DNA of 44,534 nt from Myxococcales bacterium (lineage in GTDB: Bacteria; Lernaellota; Lernaellaia; Lernaellales; Lernaellaceae). Within the stretch, counting starts at the first letter, position 1. Each line of letters starts with the position of its first letter. The DNA lies in contig JAAYVF010000044.1 in assembly GCA_012517325.1 (NCBI GenBank), positions 1 to 44,534 on the forward strand, given 5' to 3'. Under the pieces are notes generated by a model. That model did no database searches, was not told the origin of the DNA, and saw nothing but the letters and a program-made list of their open reading frames with translations. Made by a program: the position numbers and the translations under genes. Positions 1 through 8,292 of the stretch are shown here, in pieces.

Positions 1-4
1 ACCG

Positions 5-94
5 CGGTTCAGCCCCCCGTGCGGGGGGAGCACGACGAAATGCGCGTCATTGGGCCGATAGAGAACGGTTCAGCCCCCCGTGCGGGGGGAGCAC
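5..94 (-). CRISPR. Type I-E CRISPR array, leader-proximal end (two repeats, one complete spacer visible)
   Basis: Two identical 29-nt repeats lie at 5-33 and 66-94 and flank a 32-nt spacer at 34-65, giving the 61-nt period typical of type I-E. Read on the minus strand, each repeat starts GTGCTCCCCCC, forms a C6/G6 hairpin around a GCAC loop, and ends CTGAACCG. That end would be the 8-nt 5' handle and shares AACCG with the E. coli handle. The array is therefore probably transcribed leftward, in the same direction as the cas genes, with its newest spacer next to cas2. The array continues beyond the window, so its length is unknown. Confidence 0.95.
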
Positions 95-103
95 TCTTCG
101 AAA
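95..103 (-). other. Nine-base gap between cas2 stop and first CRISPR repeat (no separate leader)
   Basis: Only TTTCGAAGA (minus strand) lies between the cas2 stop codon (104-106) and the first repeat. Type I-E arrays normally have an AT-rich leader of tens to hundreds of bases that holds the promoter and integration signals. If this is the leader end, the leader must overlap the 3' part of cas2. I see no good IHF-type site there. Another reading is that the array is transcribed from within the cas operon. Confidence 0.6.
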
Positions 104-385
104 CTAAAGAGTTTTTCGTCGCGCAACCAGTGTAAGTCCTTCGAAGTCGACCAGCGTTCGGCTGGTATCGCCTTCCGCGCGGATCGAGAATCCTTGTTCG
201 TTGGCGGCCGGATAAATCTGAATGCATCCGCCGGTGCGTTTGTGGCGGATCACTTTTTCCCAGAGCCGGTCACGAACCATCGCGCTCATCTTTCCGACGA
301 ACACTCCCGCCCGCGGTTCGATCATCCAGCGCGTCAGTTGGCCCCGCAGGTTCGGCGGGGTGTTCTCCAGAATCATCACCACCAT
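104..385 (-). CDS. cas2: Cas2, type I-E CRISPR adaptation protein
   Basis: This 93-residue protein matches type I-E Cas2 along its whole length: it opens with the ILENTPPNLRG segment and has RAGVFVGKMSAMVRDRLWE and a C-terminal VDFEGLTLV strand. Cas2 dimers join two Cas1 dimers to capture and integrate new spacers. An AAGGAGGT ribosome site at 393-400 lies upstream of the chosen ATG, inside the cas1 reading frame. The gene is the last of the cas operon and stops 9 nt before the first repeat. Length and both ends agree with E. coli Cas2, so the very short downstream gap is not caused by a C-terminal extension. Confidence 0.93.
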   Translation of the reverse strand: MVVMILENTPPNLRGQLTRWMIEPRAGVFVGKMSAMVRDRLWEKVIRHKRTGGCIQIYPAANEQGFSIRAEGDTSRTLVDFEGLTLVARRKTL

Positions 386-1313
386 AATTCATACCTCCTT
401 CCAGCGTGCCCGCCGACGGATCCCACAAACCGCCCGGTTCGGCGGCGTCGGCGTCAAAATTCTTTTCCGTCGTTTCGTCGAGCGATTCGTCGATGTCGAG
501 CGCGCGGGCGAGGTCGGGAACCACGCGGTCGAGCAGCCGCACTTCGCGAAAAGCGTCACGGCAGAGGCGGCGGACCTCGCGCTCCAATTCGGCGACCCCT
601 TCGCCGGCGACGCGAAAAGCGATCGGCACGCTGACGTCCATTTTGTAAAGGTCGGCGATGTCGTAAACGAACGAAAGTTGTTTGCCGGTGTGGATGAAGC
701 CGATCGCCGGGGAATAGCCGGCCGAGACAATCGCCGCGTGGCACAAACCGTACAGGCAGGAATTGGCCGCCGACAGGGCGCGGTTGACCGGGTCCGCGGC
801 CGTCCAGTCGCCGCGTTGGTAATTGCGGCCGCTCCAGATTACGCCGTAGCGTTGCGCCGCTTCCGCATAAGCCTGCCGGACGCGCACGCCTTCCATTCCC
901 CGCAATTGTTCGATGGTCAAATCCGCCGGCAACGGCTGCACGAAGCGCATCCGGTACATCCGCATCGCCACTTGCAACCGAAGCGTGGGATCGGCGTAAA
1001 GCTCGGCCTGTCGCAGCAACTTGTCGGCCTTGCGGGTTTCGCCCATTCCTTGCGCATAGCATCGCACCGCGCCCTCGCCGCACCAAAGAATCGTACAGCC
1101 GTTTTCGGCGAGGGTTTTCACGGCCTCGTGCGTGATGGCGGTGCCGGGTCCCAGCAGCAACAAAGCCAGGGCGGCGGCGGGCGCCGGCGTCACGCCGTTT
1201 TCGTCGTAAATCGCGACGGCGCCGCCCTCGCGGTCGAGGCGCGCGTGTTCCACGTAAAGAAAGCTCAAACCGTCGCGAACCTTGGGCAACTCATGCAGAT
1301 CCTTCACGATCAT
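270..1313 (-). CDS. cas1: Cas1, type I-E CRISPR integrase with C-terminal extension overlapping cas2
   Basis: Cas1 is the metal-dependent integrase of spacer acquisition. The start ATG at 1313 follows a GGGAGGG ribosome site and gives a 347-residue protein beginning MIVKDLHELPKVRDG. The catalytic residues fall at the same numbers as in E. coli Cas1: E141 (in GMEGVRV), H208 (in FIHTGK) and D221 (in YDIADLYKMD). The first 309 residues equal a normal type I-E Cas1 (about 305). The rest is an acidic, low-complexity tail coded in the 116 nt that overlap cas2. The tail may simply be read-through into the cas2 frame after loss of an earlier stop. It lies 66 nt downstream of cas6e. Confidence 0.95.
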   Translation of the reverse strand: MIVKDLHELPKVRDGLSFLYVEHARLDREGGAVAIYDENGVTPAPAAALALLLLGPGTAITHEAVKTLAENGCTILWCGEGAVRCYAQGMGETRKADKLLRQAELYADPTLRLQVAMRMYRMRFVQPLPADLTIEQLRGMEGVRVRQAYAEAAQRYGVIWSGRNYQRGDWTAADPVNRALSAANSCLYGLCHAAIVSAGYSPAIGFIHTGKQLSFVYDIADLYKMDVSVPIAFRVAGEGVAELEREVRRLCRDAFREVRLLDRVVPDLARALDIDESLDETTEKNFDADAAEPGGLWDPSAGTLEGGMNYGGDDSGEHPAEPAGPTDALDDRTAGGSVRRKDERDGS

Positions 1314-1379
1314 GTGACCCTCCCATTGTTGGAAAATTCGGTCTTCTTCGGTTTTCAAGGAACGTTTCGCCGTTAAAGT

Positions 1380-2156
1380 CTAACGACACGCCGCCACGCT
1401 GAGCAGGCCAAACCCGAATCCCTTGGCGCTGCCGATGCCGGCGACCAGCGCGGCCCGCAATTTTTCGGGGTCGGCAACCTCGATGATTCCCTCGTAAAGC
1501 ACGGCGCGGAGTTTTTGCCCGCCGGGGCGCTGCTCGTCAGCGGAATTTTCCGGCAGGTGCTTTTCGGTTTTTCTGAAATAGACGAAGCTCGGCTGAATGG
1601 CGAGGGCGTTCGAATCGACGTTGAAGCCGGCCGTGGCGGCTTTTCGTATCAGCCACGCCGCCAGTTCGCCCTTGGCCAGGGGAACGCGTCTGCCGCTACG
1701 CCGTTTCCCGCCCGGCCCGGTTTTCGTATCGATCTTGCGGGTTGGATTCGCCAACAAGCGAAAGCGCAAACGTTGTCGCGGCCGGAAATCGACGGCGAAC
1801 GATTTTATTTCCGGCGGCGCGGCCAAAAGAAATCCGGCATTGTGAAAAGCGTAGTCCCAATCCGGTTTCGTCGCCGACTGAACGAGAATCGCCACGCGGC
1901 CGCCGGGCAGGGGATCGATGCGAAAGAGGAACCCCTGGTCCGGTTGGCGAGGAACGTGCACCTGGTCGACACCGAAATCCGCCGGTTGAAAGGGTTGAAT
2001 GAAATCCGGGTCGTCGGCTTTTCGGTTCCGGTTCGGAAACGCCATACAGAGTCGCTGATGAACGTGGTAGCGGTTCCGTATCCACAAGCGCCCCGGGCGC
2101 GGCCGGTCGGGGTTATCGCCGGTATCGATCAAAAGGTATGACAAGTACATGTTCAT
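1380..2156 (-). CDS. cas6e: Cas6e (CasE), crRNA-processing endoribonuclease
   Basis: Cas6e cleaves the repeat hairpin of the CRISPR transcript and stays bound to the 3' end of the crRNA in Cascade. The 258-residue protein begins with the MYLSYLLID strand typical of the family, has His33 in YHVHQRLC at the position of the E. coli catalytic His20, and ends with the glycine-rich loop GIGSAKGFGFG. Its start codon overlaps the cas5 stop as ATGA (2153-2156), with AGGAGG just upstream. A second in-frame ATG at 2150 would match the E. coli start even better. Part of the cas8e-to-cas2 operon. Confidence 0.93.
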   Translation of the reverse strand: MNMYLSYLLIDTGDNPDRPRPGRLWIRNRYHVHQRLCMAFPNRNRKADDPDFIQPFQPADFGVDQVHVPRQPDQGFLFRIDPLPGGRVAILVQSATKPDWDYAFHNAGFLLAAPPEIKSFAVDFRPRQRLRFRLLANPTRKIDTKTGPGGKRRSGRRVPLAKGELAAWLIRKAATAGFNVDSNALAIQPSFVYFRKTEKHLPENSADEQRPGGQKLRAVLYEGIIEVADPEKLRAALVAGIGSAKGFGFGLLSVAACR

Positions 2157-3259
2157 TCCACCTCCTCGGCGGCCAGACGACGGCGGCGGGTTTCCAGCGA
2201 ACGGAAATTAATAATTTCTTTCCGCTTCCGGATGATTGGTTCGCGCCATTGCGGGTCCTCCGGATTGATGCGATCCAAGCCCATGCCCAATCCGTATTCG
2301 ATCATGGTCACCGCGTCATGGCAGAGGCGGCAAAGCGAACGCAATTCCTCGATGTTCTCATTGCCGCCGGCGTGGCGGTAGGTGATGTGTTGTACGGTCG
2401 TGGCGGGCGATTTGCAGAATACGCAAAGACCCTTGTCGGCATCGAGACGAGCCGCGCGAATGTGGCGATATTCGGAGTTCCGATAGTCCGCGCGCGGGCG
2501 CGGCGGAGGCGGAGTCGAAAGCTGCGCGGCTTTTTCCGCGAGGCGAAGGTCGCCGTTTTCGCCAAACCGAAAGTAACGGCGAATGACGAATCGCGGTTCA
2601 TGGGCCGGGGGGTCGAAGGTCAACGGAACATCATACCAGACCAGCGCGTCAGCGGGCGCGATCGGCTGATCCGGCGTCGGTTCCCAATCGAGCAGGCAAT
2701 CAATCCTTTCCGGCAGTTGGTCGTTGTTCAGTCTTTTTTGCCAGGGGACGGAACACAGAGCCGTCAGCAAATCGGGGAATGCGCCCGGGAGATCTTCGAT
2801 GATCGGACGCGACGGCGGGCAAGCTTTTCGGCCGAGGAATAGCGTCCATTTCGGATTCTTCACGGCCGCCGCCAGATCGGCGATGAGTTTCGGTTCACCT
2901 TGCAACGCCACGAGAAAGGAAGCATCACACAGATACTCACGTCGGGTGAGCAGAGCACCGGGCTTGGTTTTACCCTCGCTTTCGGCGATCCGCATGTTCA
3001 TTCCGGCGCCGACGGTGTGGTAATCCCACCAGCGCACGCCCGGAATATCGAGGCGCACGCCCATTCGCAGGGCGCGCAATTTTGGCAACCATTCGCTGGC
3101 GGTTTCCGACCGTGAAATGCCCAAGGCCGCACAAAGCAAGCCGATCACGCCGGATTTCGTCGGCGCTTCCGCCGTTCGGCGAACGACGAATTTTGACTCC
3201 TGATTTCCCCATGCCTGGAGGGGACCGGCAAGACGAAGCAACAAGGTGTTGGCGTCCAT
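2153..3259 (-). CDS. cas5: Cas5e fused to a C-terminal HNH nuclease domain (Cas5-HNH)
   Basis: Residues 1 to about 245 are a Cas5e backbone subunit: it has the N-terminal LLRLAGPLQAWG strand, the PTKSGVIGLLCAALG helix, and GRKACPPSRP. A Pro-rich linker (residues 250-257) leads to an HNH domain at about 262-350: C279/C282 and C310/C313 form two zinc knuckles, and H291, N302 and H314 fit the His-Asn-His core, ending with the classic LCRLCH. Ordinary type I-E Cas5 lacks this domain. Published surveys described a type I-E variant with Cas5-HNH and no Cas3, where HNH cuts the target. No cas3 is seen here, which agrees. The start is 2 nt after the cas7e stop; an upstream in-frame ATG at 3301 would overlap cas7e and is less likely. 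Confidence 0.93.
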   Translation of the reverse strand: MDANTLLLRLAGPLQAWGNQESKFVVRRTAEAPTKSGVIGLLCAALGISRSETASEWLPKLRALRMGVRLDIPGVRWWDYHTVGAGMNMRIAESEGKTKPGALLTRREYLCDASFLVALQGEPKLIADLAAAVKNPKWTLFLGRKACPPSRPIIEDLPGAFPDLLTALCSVPWQKRLNNDQLPERIDCLLDWEPTPDQPIAPADALVWYDVPLTFDPPAHEPRFVIRRYFRFGENGDLRLAEKAAQLSTPPPPRPRADYRNSEYRHIRAARLDADKGLCVFCKSPATTVQHITYRHAGGNENIEELRSLCRLCHDAVTMIEYGLGMGLDRINPEDPQWREPIIRKRKEIINFRSLETRRRRLAAEEVE

Positions 3260-3261
3260 GG

Positions 3262-4377
3262 TCACACCTGAATCGCGACGACGCTTTGCACCGCCTGCCA
3301 ATCAAAACCGACGGCTGCGAGCACGGCGGGGATCAGGGCGTCAAGCGATTTGAAGTTGTCGTCGGTGAGCGGATTTTCTTTCTTTTCATGAATGAAGCTC
3401 AAGGAATGGCGCAGGTTGGGGGAGAACCAGAAGCGCTGCTGTGGCTTGCCGAATCCTTCATCGAGATCATGCACATATTGACCGAGTTGGGCGATGCTTT
3501 GCGCAACAAGGTCACGTTCTCCCTGCATGGCCGGCTTGGCGAAGGCATTGGCGTAACTGATCGGGGAATTTTTAATCTCGACCAATATCCCGTCCGGCGG
3601 ATTGTGCGCGGCAAAGCTGTTTTGTTTCCCGGTGGGATTGACCATTGCCGCGCCGCGAATAAAGGCGCCGACGGTATGCGCGGCCAATTCCCGATTGCCG
3701 TGTAGGTTCCGAACCAACGTTTCCCAATTAATCGAGAAGTACTTATAGAAGCACGCCGAGGCGAACATGGCTTCATCCACGTATCCCGCACCCGTGTCGT
3801 CGCCGGGGATGTCGTCGGCGGCGACGTAATAATCGACCTCCGGACGAGCCTCGTGGGTGGAAATGGCATGCGCCACTTGCAGCGCCGCTTCCACCGTTGT
3901 GTCCTTGAGGACCCCGGTTTCCAACATGCGACCGCCTAGCGCCATATCCGGTACGGCGACGCATTGGGAAATCAGCATTCCGAATTCATTCGCCAGGGCT
4001 TCATCGGATTTTTCTTCTTCATTTTGCAGCAGGGCGGCCATTTCGCGGATGGCTTCGTGAGTCGTATAGACCAACATATCACTGCGGTCCTCGTCCTTTG
4101 GGTTGATACCGCATTCCTTGAGAATTTTGGTCGCGCGCTTTTTCACGTCAGCCTTGCCGGTGACCTGTTCGGCAATCAGTTTCGCCAATTGTCTGGTGCG
4201 TACTCCGCCGCAAAGAGATTTGAACTCGTCACTCATCCGAATGCTTCGCTTGATGCATTGGCTGGAAATGCGGGAGCGCAGAAAGCCGCCGAAGTAACAG
4301 GTTTTGGGCGCGCCTAGATCGTCGCGGTTCAAATTGGCCGGGCTGTGATTTTGAATAGCATGAATTTCGATCAACAT
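3262..4377 (-). CDS. cas7e: Cas7e (CasC), Cascade backbone subunit
   Basis: Cas7e forms the six-subunit filament that holds the crRNA spacer in Cascade. The 371-residue protein opens with MLIEIHAIQNHSPANLNRDD and the RSRISSQCIKRSIR segment, both hallmarks of type I-E Cas7, and later has GAFIRGAAMVNPTGKQNSFA, which matches the conserved family region. The ATG at 4377 is 2 nt from the cse2 stop. A longer open frame runs upstream to 4518, but it would overlap cse2 and lacks family similarity. Length agrees with the E. coli protein (363). Confidence 0.95.
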   Translation of the reverse strand: MLIEIHAIQNHSPANLNRDDLGAPKTCYFGGFLRSRISSQCIKRSIRMSDEFKSLCGGVRTRQLAKLIAEQVTGKADVKKRATKILKECGINPKDEDRSDMLVYTTHEAIREMAALLQNEEEKSDEALANEFGMLISQCVAVPDMALGGRMLETGVLKDTTVEAALQVAHAISTHEARPEVDYYVAADDIPGDDTGAGYVDEAMFASACFYKYFSINWETLVRNLHGNRELAAHTVGAFIRGAAMVNPTGKQNSFAAHNPPDGILVEIKNSPISYANAFAKPAMQGERDLVAQSIAQLGQYVHDLDEGFGKPQQRFWFSPNLRHSLSFIHEKKENPLTDDNFKSLDALIPAVLAAVGFDWQAVQSVVAIQV

Positions 4378-4379
4378 GA

Positions 4380-4871
4380 TTATTCCCTTTCCTCTGTTGC
4401 GAGAAATTGATTTGCCCACTGCAGTCGAGTGGACTCCTTTTGCCAGAATGAAAGATCGTCGGTCAGCTTGACCCAATCCAGCTTTCCGTCGTTGTCGGCG
4501 ATTAGATGCAAAGCCCATTGAAGCGCGGGCTCGATTTTTCCCAGCGGTAAAAGCAGCATTCGATCGAACCGCTGAGCGAAGCGAATTTTCCCCGGATCTT
4601 TATGTGGCTGGCAGAGGCGTAATTGGCCGGCCAGCGTTTTTCCGGGTGTATTTTCGAGTGGACAAAAGGCGTAGAGCTTGGCGATCAGCCAAGCCACCTC
4701 ACGTCGCGGTGCCTTTTGATTTTTTTGCCTCAACGGCCACCAGAGGCCCGCGAACAGGTCGAAGCCGTCGACCGTTTCATCGAGCCCTTTTCCCGCCTGA
4801 GTCCGCAGCAAACCAAGAGCGCCTGATTGAAGATTAGTGAGGCTTTCAATGTATTGTGCCGTGGCGCTCAT
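4380..4871 (-). CDS. cse2: Cse2 (CasB), Cascade small subunit
   Basis: Cse2 dimerises along the Cascade belly and steadies the displaced DNA strand. The protein is 163 residues and all-helical in appearance, with the family's WWPLR, lysine/arginine-rich segments and the RFDRMLLLP region near residue 105. It lies between cas8e and cas7e as in every type I-E operon. Its start overlaps the cas8e stop as ATGA. Sequence conservation in this family is weak, so the call rests partly on position. Confidence 0.9.
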   Translation of the reverse strand: MSATAQYIESLTNLQSGALGLLRTQAGKGLDETVDGFDLFAGLWWPLRQKNQKAPRREVAWLIAKLYAFCPLENTPGKTLAGQLRLCQPHKDPGKIRFAQRFDRMLLLPLGKIEPALQWALHLIADNDGKLDWVKLTDDLSFWQKESTRLQWANQFLATEERE

Positions 4872-6322
4872 TGCTCATCCCCTTTCTTTTTGGCTGGTTT
4901 ATTTTCGGCAACGGCTTTTTCCCGCATGTCCGGTTTGACGATAGCAATTTGTCGTTGCCTTTGGACGGCCCCGGACGTGAATCCCGGCGCAAGTGATTTG
5001 GCGACCGCCCCCATTAGGGGTGAATATTCCTTCGCGGCTTGCTCCCAGGCGTTTTCATCGCCGGTGAGCAATTCGTCGATCTTGGCGGAGACCTGGTTTT
5101 CAACGTGGGGCCGGATCGCGGCGATGGTGGCTGGGATTTCGCTATGTTTTCTTTTTTTTGCTGTGTCTTCTTTTTTAGGGTTGCTTTTGTTGATAACTTT
5201 TAAATATTCTTTTTGCCATTTTCCGATTTTTTCAAGAATGTCCGAAAAGAGATTCTCGGCGTTTGAAGTGGGGATGAAAAATTCTTTTGCCTCGAGGTAC
5301 TTATCGTTTTGTACTGTTGAAAAGCCAACAACCCAAACGTTTCTTGCTCGACCAAGAATTTCTCGTTTTTGAATTATTCCCGATAATATTTTTGTCCATT
5401 GTCCGGCAGCAGCATCATTAGCTCCAAGAGCATTACTGGCATGTAACGATTCCGAACCGTCACCTTTGTTTGTTTTGACATATAGAACATGCGGATCTGT
5501 CCATTTTTTCTCTTGGCTAGTCTCAACGGTTTTCGTACTTCCGATACCGGCAAAAATGCATTGTTTTATTAAATGCTCTTGTCTGCCGCATGAAATACAT
5601 TTGCTTTCGAAGCCTTCTGGTTGATCTAACCATATTTGGCGTGGTAACCAAGTTAGCCCGACTAGAAATGGCACTTCACCTAAAAATTTGGATACTCCAG
5701 TTGGATTTTCCCAAAAGGGAGTTCCCAATTTTGATGTTTCTTGCCAAGAAAAACGAAGGGTTGAGGCTAATGAAAAACCCATTGGGGCAACATATATTGG
5801 AGGTTTGGCATTTATCGCTGGTGGTTTGCCCCGACCACCAGATGTGGCGAATAAAGGCAAACGCAATAATCCCATTGCACAACAAGCTGGACATAAGCCA
5901 TCTATATGATCGGTGGAATGTCTAAAATGCCATTTATTAGATCCGGTTGGGATCTCATGAATGAGGTAGTTAATTGAGAGTTTTTCCAGCCCTTCTTTCC
6001 CTGGATTGAGAAATTGATAGAACCTTTTAGTCTCGCCAAAGAGATTGAAACATTCTTTTTCCGCATCCATTTTGGCAAACCAAGATGCAGGAAAAGAGGA
6101 GTCAGTAAGATCATGGAGAATTTCTTCTGAAGGATTCCCCTTGCACCAATACAGAGTGGCCAACAGAAAGCGGAAAATCGCGAACCGGTCCATTGGATTG
6201 CTTGCCGCGATCTGTCGAATGTTGCCGGCTTGGGTAAGCGCGTCCTTGATGCCGACGCGGCTTACTTTACCATTAGTCCATAGTACCGGGATCCACTTTT
6301 CTTCAATCAAGTTATAGTTCAT
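4868..6322 (-). CDS. cas8e: Cas8e (CasA/Cse1), Cascade large subunit
   Basis: Cas8e recognises the PAM and starts R-loop formation. The 484-residue protein begins MNYNLIEEKWIPV, the family signature, and has CPAC (144-147) and CISC (242-245), a likely structural zinc site. It also has the GGRGKPPAIN loop near residue 162 and a helical C-terminal bundle. The ATG at 6322 is preferred over one at 6328 because GGGAG sits 7 nt upstream of it. In canonical type I-E, Cas8e also recruits Cas3; here no cas3 is seen, so that role may have been lost. Its DNA, mainly 5150-6100, is far richer in A and T than the rest of the window, which suggests a recently exchanged module. Confidence 0.94.
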   Translation of the reverse strand: MNYNLIEEKWIPVLWTNGKVSRVGIKDALTQAGNIRQIAASNPMDRFAIFRFLLATLYWCKGNPSEEILHDLTDSSFPASWFAKMDAEKECFNLFGETKRFYQFLNPGKEGLEKLSINYLIHEIPTGSNKWHFRHSTDHIDGLCPACCAMGLLRLPLFATSGGRGKPPAINAKPPIYVAPMGFSLASTLRFSWQETSKLGTPFWENPTGVSKFLGEVPFLVGLTWLPRQIWLDQPEGFESKCISCGRQEHLIKQCIFAGIGSTKTVETSQEKKWTDPHVLYVKTNKGDGSESLHASNALGANDAAAGQWTKILSGIIQKREILGRARNVWVVGFSTVQNDKYLEAKEFFIPTSNAENLFSDILEKIGKWQKEYLKVINKSNPKKEDTAKKRKHSEIPATIAAIRPHVENQVSAKIDELLTGDENAWEQAAKEYSPLMGAVAKSLAPGFTSGAVQRQRQIAIVKPDMREKAVAENKPAKKKGDEQ

Positions 6323-6397
6323 GACCATACTCCCATCCTTGAACCGATAAGTGTTTTTGCTTGTTTTCCGTTGCGGCGCAGGCCACCGCCCGGATTT

Positions 6398-6422
6398 ATT
6401 CGACTACGCCAAGTAGTCGAAT
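6398..6422. promoter_or_regulatory. Ten-base inverted repeat upstream of cas operon
   Basis: Perfect 10-nt arms ATTCGACTAC (6398-6407) and GTAGTCGAAT (6413-6422) surround a 5-nt centre. The element lies 76 nt upstream of the cas8e start, inside the likely 5' untranslated region. It has no T tract, so it does not look like a terminator. It could be an operator for a dimeric regulator or an RNA hairpin. The function is not known. Confidence 0.5.
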
Positions 6423-6596
6423 CCATTTATGGCGGCGAGCCCTGATCGGCATTTTTTTATTGTGGCAATCGTGTGTGTTCATGATGCTTGTCGCGATCAT
6501 GGGCAGCGCGACTGTTCCATGATGGCATGCTTTCCAATACCCAATGTCGCGTAACCAAGTTGATAGGAAAGTTATGACACCCAATTAACCCCGGCA
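6423..6596. other. Intergenic stretch without a recognisable gene
   Basis: Between the inverted repeat and the proposed cas promoter no open frame shows coding character. A 62-codon frame (6396-6584, minus) has no ribosome site and no recognisable motif. A small CATGAT/ATCATG inverted repeat lies around 6480-6502. I see no remnant of a cas3 gene. Confidence 0.5.
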
Positions 6597-6626
6597 AAGA
6601 TAATCCGGGATGAAATGTGTCGTCAA
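6597..6626 (-). promoter_or_regulatory. Possible promoter of the cas operon
   Basis: On the minus strand TTGACG (6626-6621) is followed after 18 nt by TATCTT (6602-6597). The -35 matches five of six and the -10 four of six consensus bases. It would start a transcript about 265 nt upstream of cas8e, and the inverted repeat at 6398-6422 would lie in its leader. Confidence 0.35.
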
Positions 6627-6689
6627 CAGGGCTTAAGAGTGAAAAACTTGAAAAGTCGAATGCCGTTTGGCTGAAAAGGTTTTAAAAAA

Positions 6690-6716
6690 ACCGGGCGGCC
6701 GGAAGCGGCCGCCCGG
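6690..6716 (-). terminator. Rho-independent terminator of the 6738-8066 gene
   Basis: On the minus strand a GC-rich stem built of CCGGGCGGCC and GGCCGCCCGG arms is followed by a run of seven T. It lies 22 nt downstream of the stop codon of the lipoprotein gene. It also isolates the cas operon from transcription of that gene. Confidence 0.85.
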
Positions 6717-6737
6717 GGAGATTAAGGGGTGGCGAAT

Positions 6738-8066
6738 TTATTCCGCGGCGTCGTCGTCGGCCGGGGGCAGCGAAGTGTCGTCGTCGGCGGCATCGTCGTC
6801 GGCCGGGCTGGTGTCGTCGTCGGTCGCCGAGTCGTCATCGGAAGGAAGGCCGGGGTCGGGGATATCGAACATGGTCACGGCGTAAAGGTGATCGCCCTGG
6901 TCGCCCTCGATGAACCGGGCCAGTTGCCAACCTTCGGTGCTGCGCATCAGGAACAGGGGTTCGTTGAAGTCGGACGTGTAGCCCACGGCCCAGCCGCGAT
7001 CCTTGTCGACCAGACTGATGTCCTCGAGCACGTACTTGTCGCCCTTGACGCCGGGCAGCGACGCTTCGGCCCACTGGTCGCCGGCGACCTGTTCGTAAAT
7101 CTGCGAGTAGAGGCAATCGGCGATGGCGAGCCCGGCGCCGTCGGCGGTGAAGTACAAGCGCCGCACGCGGTTGGTTTTGCAGCCGGTGGTCGGCGTCAAC
7201 AGGAACGACGCCCATTCCGTGGCCTCGGCTCCGCGGTGCCACATGGTGCCGCGCTTTTCGCCCTCGACCATGCTGTAGCCGGCCGCCCAAATGGAGCCGT
7301 CGGCGGCTTGGGCCGCGTCGAGGATCTGGGCGGCGGGGACGTACACCGGCGAGGAATCGTCGTCGTCGTCGTCATCGTCGGCCGAGGTGTCGTCGTCGGC
7401 GGCGGTATCGTCGTCGTCGTCGGCGCCGACCTCGATGTATTGAACCTGGAAGATCGGGTCGGGGGTCACCGTGGAGCCGTCCCACCGCAAGTGCTGGTAC
7501 CAGCCGTCCACGACGCCGACCAGGTGGATCGCCTGATCTTCCGGCACGGGGAACAGGGCCACCAGATACATCGGATTGGAGGTGATGGCGCCTTGCACCG
7601 GGATGATGTTGGCGCTGCCGTCGAGCAGGAAGCAGACCAGATAGCCGTTATAAAGCGCATCGTTGGCGGCTACCCAGAAGGAGCCGTCGGGCAGGAAAAC
7701 GCCGTCGACGATGTCGGCGGTCGGCATTCCCGGCGGGGTCAGGTTCTGCCAGGCGCCCGCATTGTAGCGGTAAACGACCCGCTGGCCCCAGACGAAACCG
7801 TAGGCGCGGTTGAAAAAGGCGCTGCCGATGATGCGGTTGCTGAAGGGCGTCGCCGCGTCAACGTTCCATTGGCCGGCTTGATAGTGGTAGAGCGAATCCC
7901 CAAAGCCCCAACCGTAGATGGTCATGTCGTACAATTGCGGCGGAGTCTTGCCGTCCTTCCCGTCGTCTTTGTCGTCGTCGTCGTCTTTGCCGCAGGTGGA
8001 AAAAGCGAACAACACTCCCATCAGCGCCGCGATCAAAGCGGCGACAACAATCACTCGGCGGTTCAT
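6738..8066 (-). CDS. Asp-rich exported lipoprotein with repeat-like (BNR/propeller-type) body
   Basis: The 442-residue protein starts with a signal peptide ending AFSTC, a plausible though imperfect lipobox (Cys25), followed at once by an Asp/Lys-rich linker. The body has repeated Gly/Trp-containing strands such as GSFWVAAND, GSIWAAGYS and RGWAVGYTS, as in BNR/photosynthesis-stability-type propellers that occur in surface proteins. Two more Asp/Ser/Thr tracts occur, near residues 218-243 and over the last 40 residues. GGGAGG lies 4 nt before the ATG at 8066. A TTG one codon upstream is less likely. No enzymatic motif is recognised; surface location is inferred. Confidence 0.75.
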   Translation of the reverse strand: MNRRVIVVAALIAALMGVLFAFSTCGKDDDDDKDDGKDGKTPPQLYDMTIYGWGFGDSLYHYQAGQWNVDAATPFSNRIIGSAFFNRAYGFVWGQRVVYRYNAGAWQNLTPPGMPTADIVDGVFLPDGSFWVAANDALYNGYLVCFLLDGSANIIPVQGAITSNPMYLVALFPVPEDQAIHLVGVVDGWYQHLRWDGSTVTPDPIFQVQYIEVGADDDDDTAADDDTSADDDDDDDDSSPVYVPAAQILDAAQAADGSIWAAGYSMVEGEKRGTMWHRGAEATEWASFLLTPTTGCKTNRVRRLYFTADGAGLAIADCLYSQIYEQVAGDQWAEASLPGVKGDKYVLEDISLVDKDRGWAVGYTSDFNEPLFLMRSTEGWQLARFIEGDQGDHLYAVTMFDIPDPGLPSDDDSATDDDTSPADDDAADDDTSLPPADDDAAE

Positions 8067-8218
8067 CAAACCTCCCTACCTGACTGCCGACCCGTGGGGT
8101 ACTCTAACTCAAAACATCGGGCGCGCCAATCTCGGCGCAACTTTTTTCCCGCGACGGTTTCTAAGTAGAGGCGACTTTCGCAAAGGGGCGTAGTATATAA
8201 ATAAATACGCCTGAAATC

Positions 8219-8247
8219 TTGACTTCTCGGGCTTTGTGAAATACGTT
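8219..8247 (+). promoter_or_regulatory. Possible promoter of the tol operon
   Basis: TTGACT (8219-8224) and TACGTT (8242-8247) are 17 nt apart. The -35 is strong and the -10 weak. A start near 8254 would lie downstream of the GTG at 8236 and so would favour the TTG start of tolQ at 8293. Confidence 0.4.
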
Positions 8248-8292
8248 TGTCGCCAATTCGAGAACCGTGGGGCAAACAGGAGAAAATCGATT

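What the first reader, a model, noticed from the sequence alone, without database searches (positions are those of the whole stretch)
2153..6322. Cas3-less type I-E system whose Cas5 carries an HNH nuclease
The operon has every Cascade subunit plus Cas1-Cas2, but no cas3. Cas5 ends in an HNH domain with both zinc knuckles and His-Asn-His residues present (C279/C282, H291, N302, C310/C313, H314). This is the signature of the Cas5-HNH variant known from large-scale mining, where target cleavage would come from the complex itself rather than a processive helicase. A new lineage with full adaptation genes and an array is valuable for comparing cut site, PAM and DNA damage pattern.
Basis: partly seen in the sequence, partly recalled or inferred. 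Interest (0 to 1): 0.92.

Follow-up and report, generated by a model that had tools for sequence, protein, structure and literature searches.

The report
Cas3-less I-E2 CRISPR with Cas5-HNH nuclease
This bacterium carries a CRISPR immune system whose targeting complex has its own built-in DNA cutter instead of the usual Cas3 helicase-nuclease; it is a well-preserved further member of a recently described variant (subtype I-E2), not a new kind of system.

Summary
The minus strand encodes cas8e-cas11-cas7-cas5-cas6e-cas1-cas2 and the start of a CRISPR array (29-nt repeats, 32-nt spacers), and Cas5 ends in an HNH domain. The genome (96.75% complete) has no Cas3 HD domain and no Cas3 helicase above cut-off. 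All five effector subunits have their best solved match in the Candidatus Cloacimonetes Cas5-HNH Cascade (PDB 8yb6 and related entries); Cas5 is about 58% identical. An AlphaFold model with a confident HNH domain has Cas5-HNH Cascade as its top fold match. The system therefore belongs to published variant I-E2. I collected 57 Cas5-HNH proteins from more than a dozen phyla. This one is nested inside that diversity, not a new lineage. One detail is wrong: N302 is not conserved, and the HNH Asn position is residue 305 (Glu here; Asp or Glu in 56 of 57). New context: a same-family genome holds a canonical I-E operon with Cas3 at the same gene order. The Cas3-less effector forms one clade (Cas7 tree), whereas its Cas1 is mixed with canonical I-E Cas1 (AU p = 3e-7), so adaptation modules were exchanged. 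The rest of the array lies on another contig.

The parts
4868..6322 (-). cas8e (cse1), large subunit, 484 aa; PAM recognition expected
   Evidence: PADLOC Cas8e 1.9e-37; best solved match is the Cas5-HNH Cascade Cse1, 8yb6 chain J, 3.8e-70
4380..4871 (-). cas11 (cse2), small subunit, 163 aa
   Evidence: TIGR02548 7.9e-14; 8yb6 chain K 2.6e-37
3262..4377 (-). cas7 (cse4), backbone subunit; start placed at MLIEI by comparison with relatives (ORF opens further upstream)
   Evidence: TIGR01869 4.9e-76; 8yb6 chain D 8.3e-130
2153..3259 (-). cas5-HNH, 368 aa: Cas5e domain (about residues 1-235), linker, C-terminal HNH
   Evidence: PDB 8yb6 chain A 2.8e-135; Pfam Cas_Cas5d and HNH; AlphaFold model, Foldseek top 8zlu/8yha/8yb6
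2285..2476 (-). HNH nuclease domain, about residues 262-325 (C279, C282, H291, E305, C310, C313, H314)
   Evidence: alignment of 57 Cas5-HNH proteins; 10-residue-block mean pLDDT 86-97 over residues 261-320
1380..2156 (-). cas6e, crRNA endoribonuclease, 258 aa
   Evidence: TIGR01907 5.2e-21; 8yb6 chain B 2e-48
270..1313 (-). cas1e, integrase, about 347 aa (ORF opens at 1358)
   Evidence: TIGR03638 1.1e-115
104..385 (-). cas2e, 93 aa; stop codon only 9 nt before the first repeat
   Evidence: TIGR01873 7.2e-24; sequence
5..94 (-). start of the CRISPR array: two copies of GTGCTCCCCCCGCACGGGGGGCTGAACCG around one 32-nt spacer; the rest of the array lies on contig C31 of the same genome

Best explanation
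This is a complete subtype I-E2 CRISPR-Cas system. Cas6e cuts the array transcript into crRNAs with 32-nt spacers (anatomy shown here, processing inferred). Cas8e, Cas11, Cas7, Cas5-HNH and Cas6e assemble a Cascade around the crRNA (inferred from close homology to a solved complex). [quoted passage not shown] Cas1-Cas2 adds spacers, necessarily without Cas3-driven priming (inferred from the absence of Cas3).
For: All five effector subunits have their best PDB match in the Cas5-HNH Cascade entries. The Cas5-HNH model's top fold matches are the same complex. HNH zinc ligands and both histidines are invariant in 57 relatives. There is no Cas3 in the genome and no cas3 remnant upstream of cas8. 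The operon is the same in about 54 Cas5-HNH loci. The relative was shown to cleave dsDNA in vitro and to edit human cells, and HNH mutation abolished the editing (PMC10910872). The repeat-spacer period is 61 nt, fitting a 32-nt-spacer crRNA.
Against: No protospacer or PAM was found, so targets are unknown. The genome is 96.75% complete in 134 contigs, so a cas3 in a gap is not strictly excluded. Activity of this particular protein is untested, and the middle HNH residue is Glu, where Asp is commoner in relatives.
Confidence: 0.93

Rival explanations
1. The complex is a canonical I-E Cascade that still relies on a Cas3 supplied in trans, with HNH as an accessory nuclease.
For: Four of 49 I-E2 genomes also carry a separate, complete or near-complete canonical I-E operon with Cas3, one of them on the same 2.6-Mb scaffold. 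A genome of the same family as the window has canonical I-E.
Against: This genome has no Cas3_HD hit and no Cas3 helicase above cut-off. Its other CRISPR system is a Cas9 type. The Cloacimonetes relative cuts without Cas3 (PMC10910872).
Confidence: 0.03
2. The HNH domain is catalytically decayed and the complex silences by binding only.
For: The canonical HNH Asn is replaced (E305) and the residue before the catalytic His is Gln.
Against: The same replacements occur across the family (Gln in 55 of 57, Asp/Glu in 56 of 57), including the Cloacimonetes locus L048 whose HNH sequence matches the solved, active protein. Zinc and His residues are invariant and the HNH region is modelled with high confidence.
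Confidence: 0.03
3. The locus is a relic: adaptation genes and array are inactive remains.
For: The array is short so far (7 perfect repeats plus a degenerate end over two contigs).
Against: All seven cas genes are intact open frames, the repeats are identical, and the degenerate repeat sits only at the trailer end as in normal arrays.
Confidence: 0.02

Closest known systems
Type I-E2 Cas5-HNH Cascade of Candidatus Cloacimonetes (PDB 8yb6, 8yha, 8zlu, 9jxs; PMC10910872)
   Same: Same subunits, same Cas5-HNH architecture, no Cas3, 29-nt repeats with 32-nt spacers, same invariant HNH residues; Cas5 about 58% identical.
   Different: Different host phylum; Cas8, Cas11 and Cas6 are only 35, 44 and 46% identical to the Cloacimonetes locus L048; repeat hairpin is GC-rich (CCCCCCGCACGGGGGG); PAM and cut positions not determined.
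Type I-E2 loci L024 (bacterium ADurb.Bin236), L021 and L026
   Same: Nearest by Cas7 (76-82% identical) and about 70-73% in Cas5.
   Different: Their Cas1 and Cas2 are only about 46-53% identical to the window's; the window's Cas1-Cas2 resemble those of its own phylum instead.
Canonical type I-E of genome G006, same family as the window (L017)
   Same: Cas1 64%, Cas2 69% identical, same C-terminal tail of Cas1, same 9-nt gap between cas2 and the first repeat, same gene order.
   Different: Has an 888-aa Cas3 with HD, helicase and C-terminal domains and a 230-aa Cas5 without HNH; effector subunits 17-41% identical.
Type I-F4 Cas8-HNH Cascade (PMC11459484, PMC12669027)
   Same: HNH built into a Cascade subunit, Cas3 absent.
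   Different: HNH sits in Cas8f, not Cas5; independent acquisition.

Membership tests
CRISPR-Cas subtype I-E2 (Cas5-HNH) | HNH nuclease fused to the C-terminus of Cas5 | tested here: met
CRISPR-Cas subtype I-E2 (Cas5-HNH) | Full I-E effector set cas8e, cas11, cas7, cas5, cas6e | tested here: met
CRISPR-Cas subtype I-E2 (Cas5-HNH) | Cas3 usually absent | tested here: met
   No Cas3_HD in the genome, TIGR01587 below cut-off only, no remnant upstream
CRISPR-Cas subtype I-E2 (Cas5-HNH) | Effector subunits fall in one clade with known I-E2, apart from canonical I-E | tested here: met
   Cas7 tree, 57 HNH rows against 10 canonical rows, support 100
CRISPR-Cas subtype I-E2 (Cas5-HNH) | crRNA-guided, PAM-dependent double-strand cut by HNH | not testable with these tools
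   shown for the Cloacimonetes relative only (PMC10910872)
Canonical subtype I-E | Cas3 helicase-nuclease | tested here: not met
Canonical HNH motif (PF01844) | His-Asn-His triad with two CxxC zinc knuckles | tested here: inconclusive
   Both His and both CxxC met; middle Asn replaced by E305, Asp/Glu in 56 of 57 relatives; profile still scores above the gathering cut-off

The most novel reading that the evidence does not exclude
I-E2 effectors are a mobile, once-evolved cassette that plugs into resident I-E adaptation modules. These adaptation modules, with the first repeat often abutting cas2 and little room for a classical leader, acquire spacers without Cas3, possibly from the 3'-overhang ends made by HNH cleavage. 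The window would be a case in which a Cas3-type effector and an HNH effector alternate beside the same phylum-specific Cas1-Cas2.
Probability: 0.3. Interest if true: 0.55.

Novelty: new member of a known kind. Interest (0 to 1): 0.33.

Why it matters
Subtype I-E2 is rare in the literature and only one ortholog, from Cloacimonetes, has been characterised in the papers I could read. This locus is an intact second reference from a poorly sampled phylum, with a very different Cas8 (possibly a different PAM), which helps in comparing cut position, PAM and collateral activity. The sister genome with a Cas3-containing I-E beside a similar Cas1-Cas2 gives a natural pair for asking how spacers are acquired when Cas3, needed for primed adaptation, is missing.

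Tried and rejected
Three of the six complete spacers were searched as exact 22-23-mers against IMG/VR: no match, so no PAM. The paper on the I-E HNH structures (Zhang et al. 2024, Mol Cell) is not held, so the published catalytic residues could not be compared residue by residue. Annotated phage and plasmid collections gave no match covering 80% of Cas5-HNH, and the listed ones cover only the Cas5 part. Searches by phylum around other loci were not possible. Considered and rejected: Cas3 encoded elsewhere in this genome; Cas5-HNH as an assembly artefact (57 relatives share the fusion); a new lineage of I-E2.

Full report
What is there. The window is the whole of contig C44 of a 5.25-Mb, 134-contig genome that is 96.75% complete. 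On the minus strand, reading from 6322 down to 1, it holds cas8e, cas11, cas7, cas5, cas6e, cas1e and cas2e, each matched by curated profiles (the NCBIfam Cas8e profile scores just under its cut-off, PADLOC's is strong), followed 9 nt after the cas2 stop by a CRISPR array. The contig ends inside the array after two repeats. Five further identical repeats and a degenerate terminal repeat sit at the very edge of contig C31, so the array has at least seven perfect repeats of GTGCTCCCCCCGCACGGGGGGCTGAACCG with 32-nt spacers, and the two contigs are probably neighbours. The crRNA strand is the strand of the cas genes.

Cas5-HNH. The protein is 368 aa from ATG 3259. Residues 4-184 match Cas5 and residues 278-316 match HNH. 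Against the PDB its best matches by far are the Cas5 chains of the Candidatus Cloacimonetes I-E HNH Cascade (8yb6 and related entries, 2.8e-135); identity to it is 58%. Cas8, Cas11, Cas7 and Cas6 also find that complex as their best solved match. An AlphaFold model made with 55 orthologs has mean pLDDT 85.9, with most of the HNH region above 85, and Foldseek returns the Cas5-HNH Cascade structures first. The overall rmsd of about 12 A, against 2-3 A for the entries in which only about 205-227 residues of Cas5 are resolved, suggests a different HNH orientation, consistent with a mobile domain.

Active site. In 57 Cas5-HNH proteins C279, C282, H291, C310, C313, H314 and D315 are invariant (numbers there are one lower). 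The Cloacimonetes protein also has Asp there and cuts DNA, so the replacement does not imply inactivity.

Cas3. Pfam Cas3_HD has no hit in the genome, while the same search rings in 7 control genomes. The Cas3 helicase profile gives four hits, all below its cut-off; three were read and are Mfd and two other large helicases. No cas3 remnant was found upstream of cas8 by tblastn. The only other Cas1 in the genome belongs to a type II system with a 1068-aa Cas9 and an array of about 25 repeats.

Relatives. A scan of 84,980 species genomes gave 54 Cas5-HNH loci, L019-L072, in Planctomycetota, Chloroflexota, Armatimonadota, Nitrospirota, Nitrospinota, Myxococcota, Thermodesulfobacteriota, Cloacimonadota, Acidobacteriota, Hydrogenedentota, Sumerlaeota, Pseudomonadota, Bacillota and others. 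Nearly all complete ones show the order cas8-11-7-5-6-1-2, and none has an intact cas3 in the operon. L033 (weak), L034 and L039 keep short cas3 fragments just upstream of cas8, the place where cas3 stands in canonical operons. Remnants of this kind were already reported (PMC10910872). Of 49 I-E2 genomes searched, four also carry a separate canonical I-E operon with Cas3 (L108-L111), one of them on the same 2.6-Mb scaffold, so Cas3 in trans is possible there but not here.

History. Within the window's phylum only seven species genomes are held. One of another family has Cas5-HNH (L016, 70% identical), and one of the same family (L017) has canonical I-E with an 888-aa Cas3 and a Cas5 without HNH. 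The window's effector subunits are 17-41% identical to L017's, but its Cas1 and Cas2 are 64 and 69% identical. In the Cas7 tree all 57 HNH rows form one side of a branch against 10 canonical rows (support 100). In the Cas1 tree they do not: the tree needs five or six changes of label, and holding the HNH rows together is rejected (lnL 91 lower, AU p 2.8e-7, with three long-branch rows left out). The window, L016 and canonical L017 group together in Cas1 (support 86). The simplest reading is one origin of the HNH effector complex, wide horizontal spread, and repeated exchange of adaptation modules with canonical I-E. These are quick trees with one marker each, so branch details are tentative.

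Mechanism. By close homology, the complex should recognise a PAM through Cas8e, form an R-loop, and cut both strands beyond the PAM-distal end with its HNH domain; for the Cloacimonetes complex the cuts are 3-4 nt (target strand) and 8 nt (non-target strand) beyond the protospacer, with 3' overhangs and collateral ssDNA cleavage (PMC10910872), and the HNH lies between Cas6 and Cas11 and moves with Cas6 (PMC11822464). None of this was measured for the present proteins. No PAM could be derived because the three spacers tested have no exact match in IMG/VR.

Standing. The 2025 classification names this variant I-E2 (PMC12669027). The window is a new, intact member in a sparsely sampled phylum; it is not a new lineage of I-E2, since it nests within a 28-row clade. 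It is useful, but not surprising to a specialist. The more interesting residue is the question of adaptation without Cas3.

Noticed in passing
L018 (IMG/VR 3300005916_000376), 1-8259: A Cas5-HNH operon (Cas5 72% identical to the window's) lies beside phage head genes: portal (PF05136, 5e-64), head maturation protease and a scaffold-like protein. Either a phage carries a Cas3-less CRISPR complex, or a prophage or chimeric assembly joins the two.
   Followed up: partly
window 95-106; many I-E2 loci: The first repeat starts 9 nt after the cas2 stop. In 27 of 44 I-E2 loci with a measurable array the gap is 20 nt or less (counted), leaving no room for a classical leader unless it lies inside cas2; nine of ten canonical I-E loci measured had gaps of 29 nt or more, the exception being the same-family L017 (9 nt).
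   Followed up: partly
G000 contig C48, L076:7222-13293: Second CRISPR system in the same genome: a 1068-aa Cas9 with Cas1 and about 25 repeats of GTTGCGGTTTGATCTCTGATTCGGAACGGTTACACT, type II.
   Followed up: partly
L044 and L109 (same 2.6-Mb scaffold); also L039/L110, L019/L108, L059/L111: Genomes holding both a Cas5-HNH I-E2 operon and a canonical I-E operon with Cas3.
   Followed up: partly
L033:6442-6789, L034:157-321, L039:6452-6880: Short cas3 fragments directly upstream of cas8 in I-E2 operons, as if cas3 was lost in place.
   Followed up: yes
window 6738-8069; L015 3374-5599 and 6209-8788: Large proteins with long Asp/Asn-rich low-complexity stretches recur in this genome; function not examined.
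   Followed up: no
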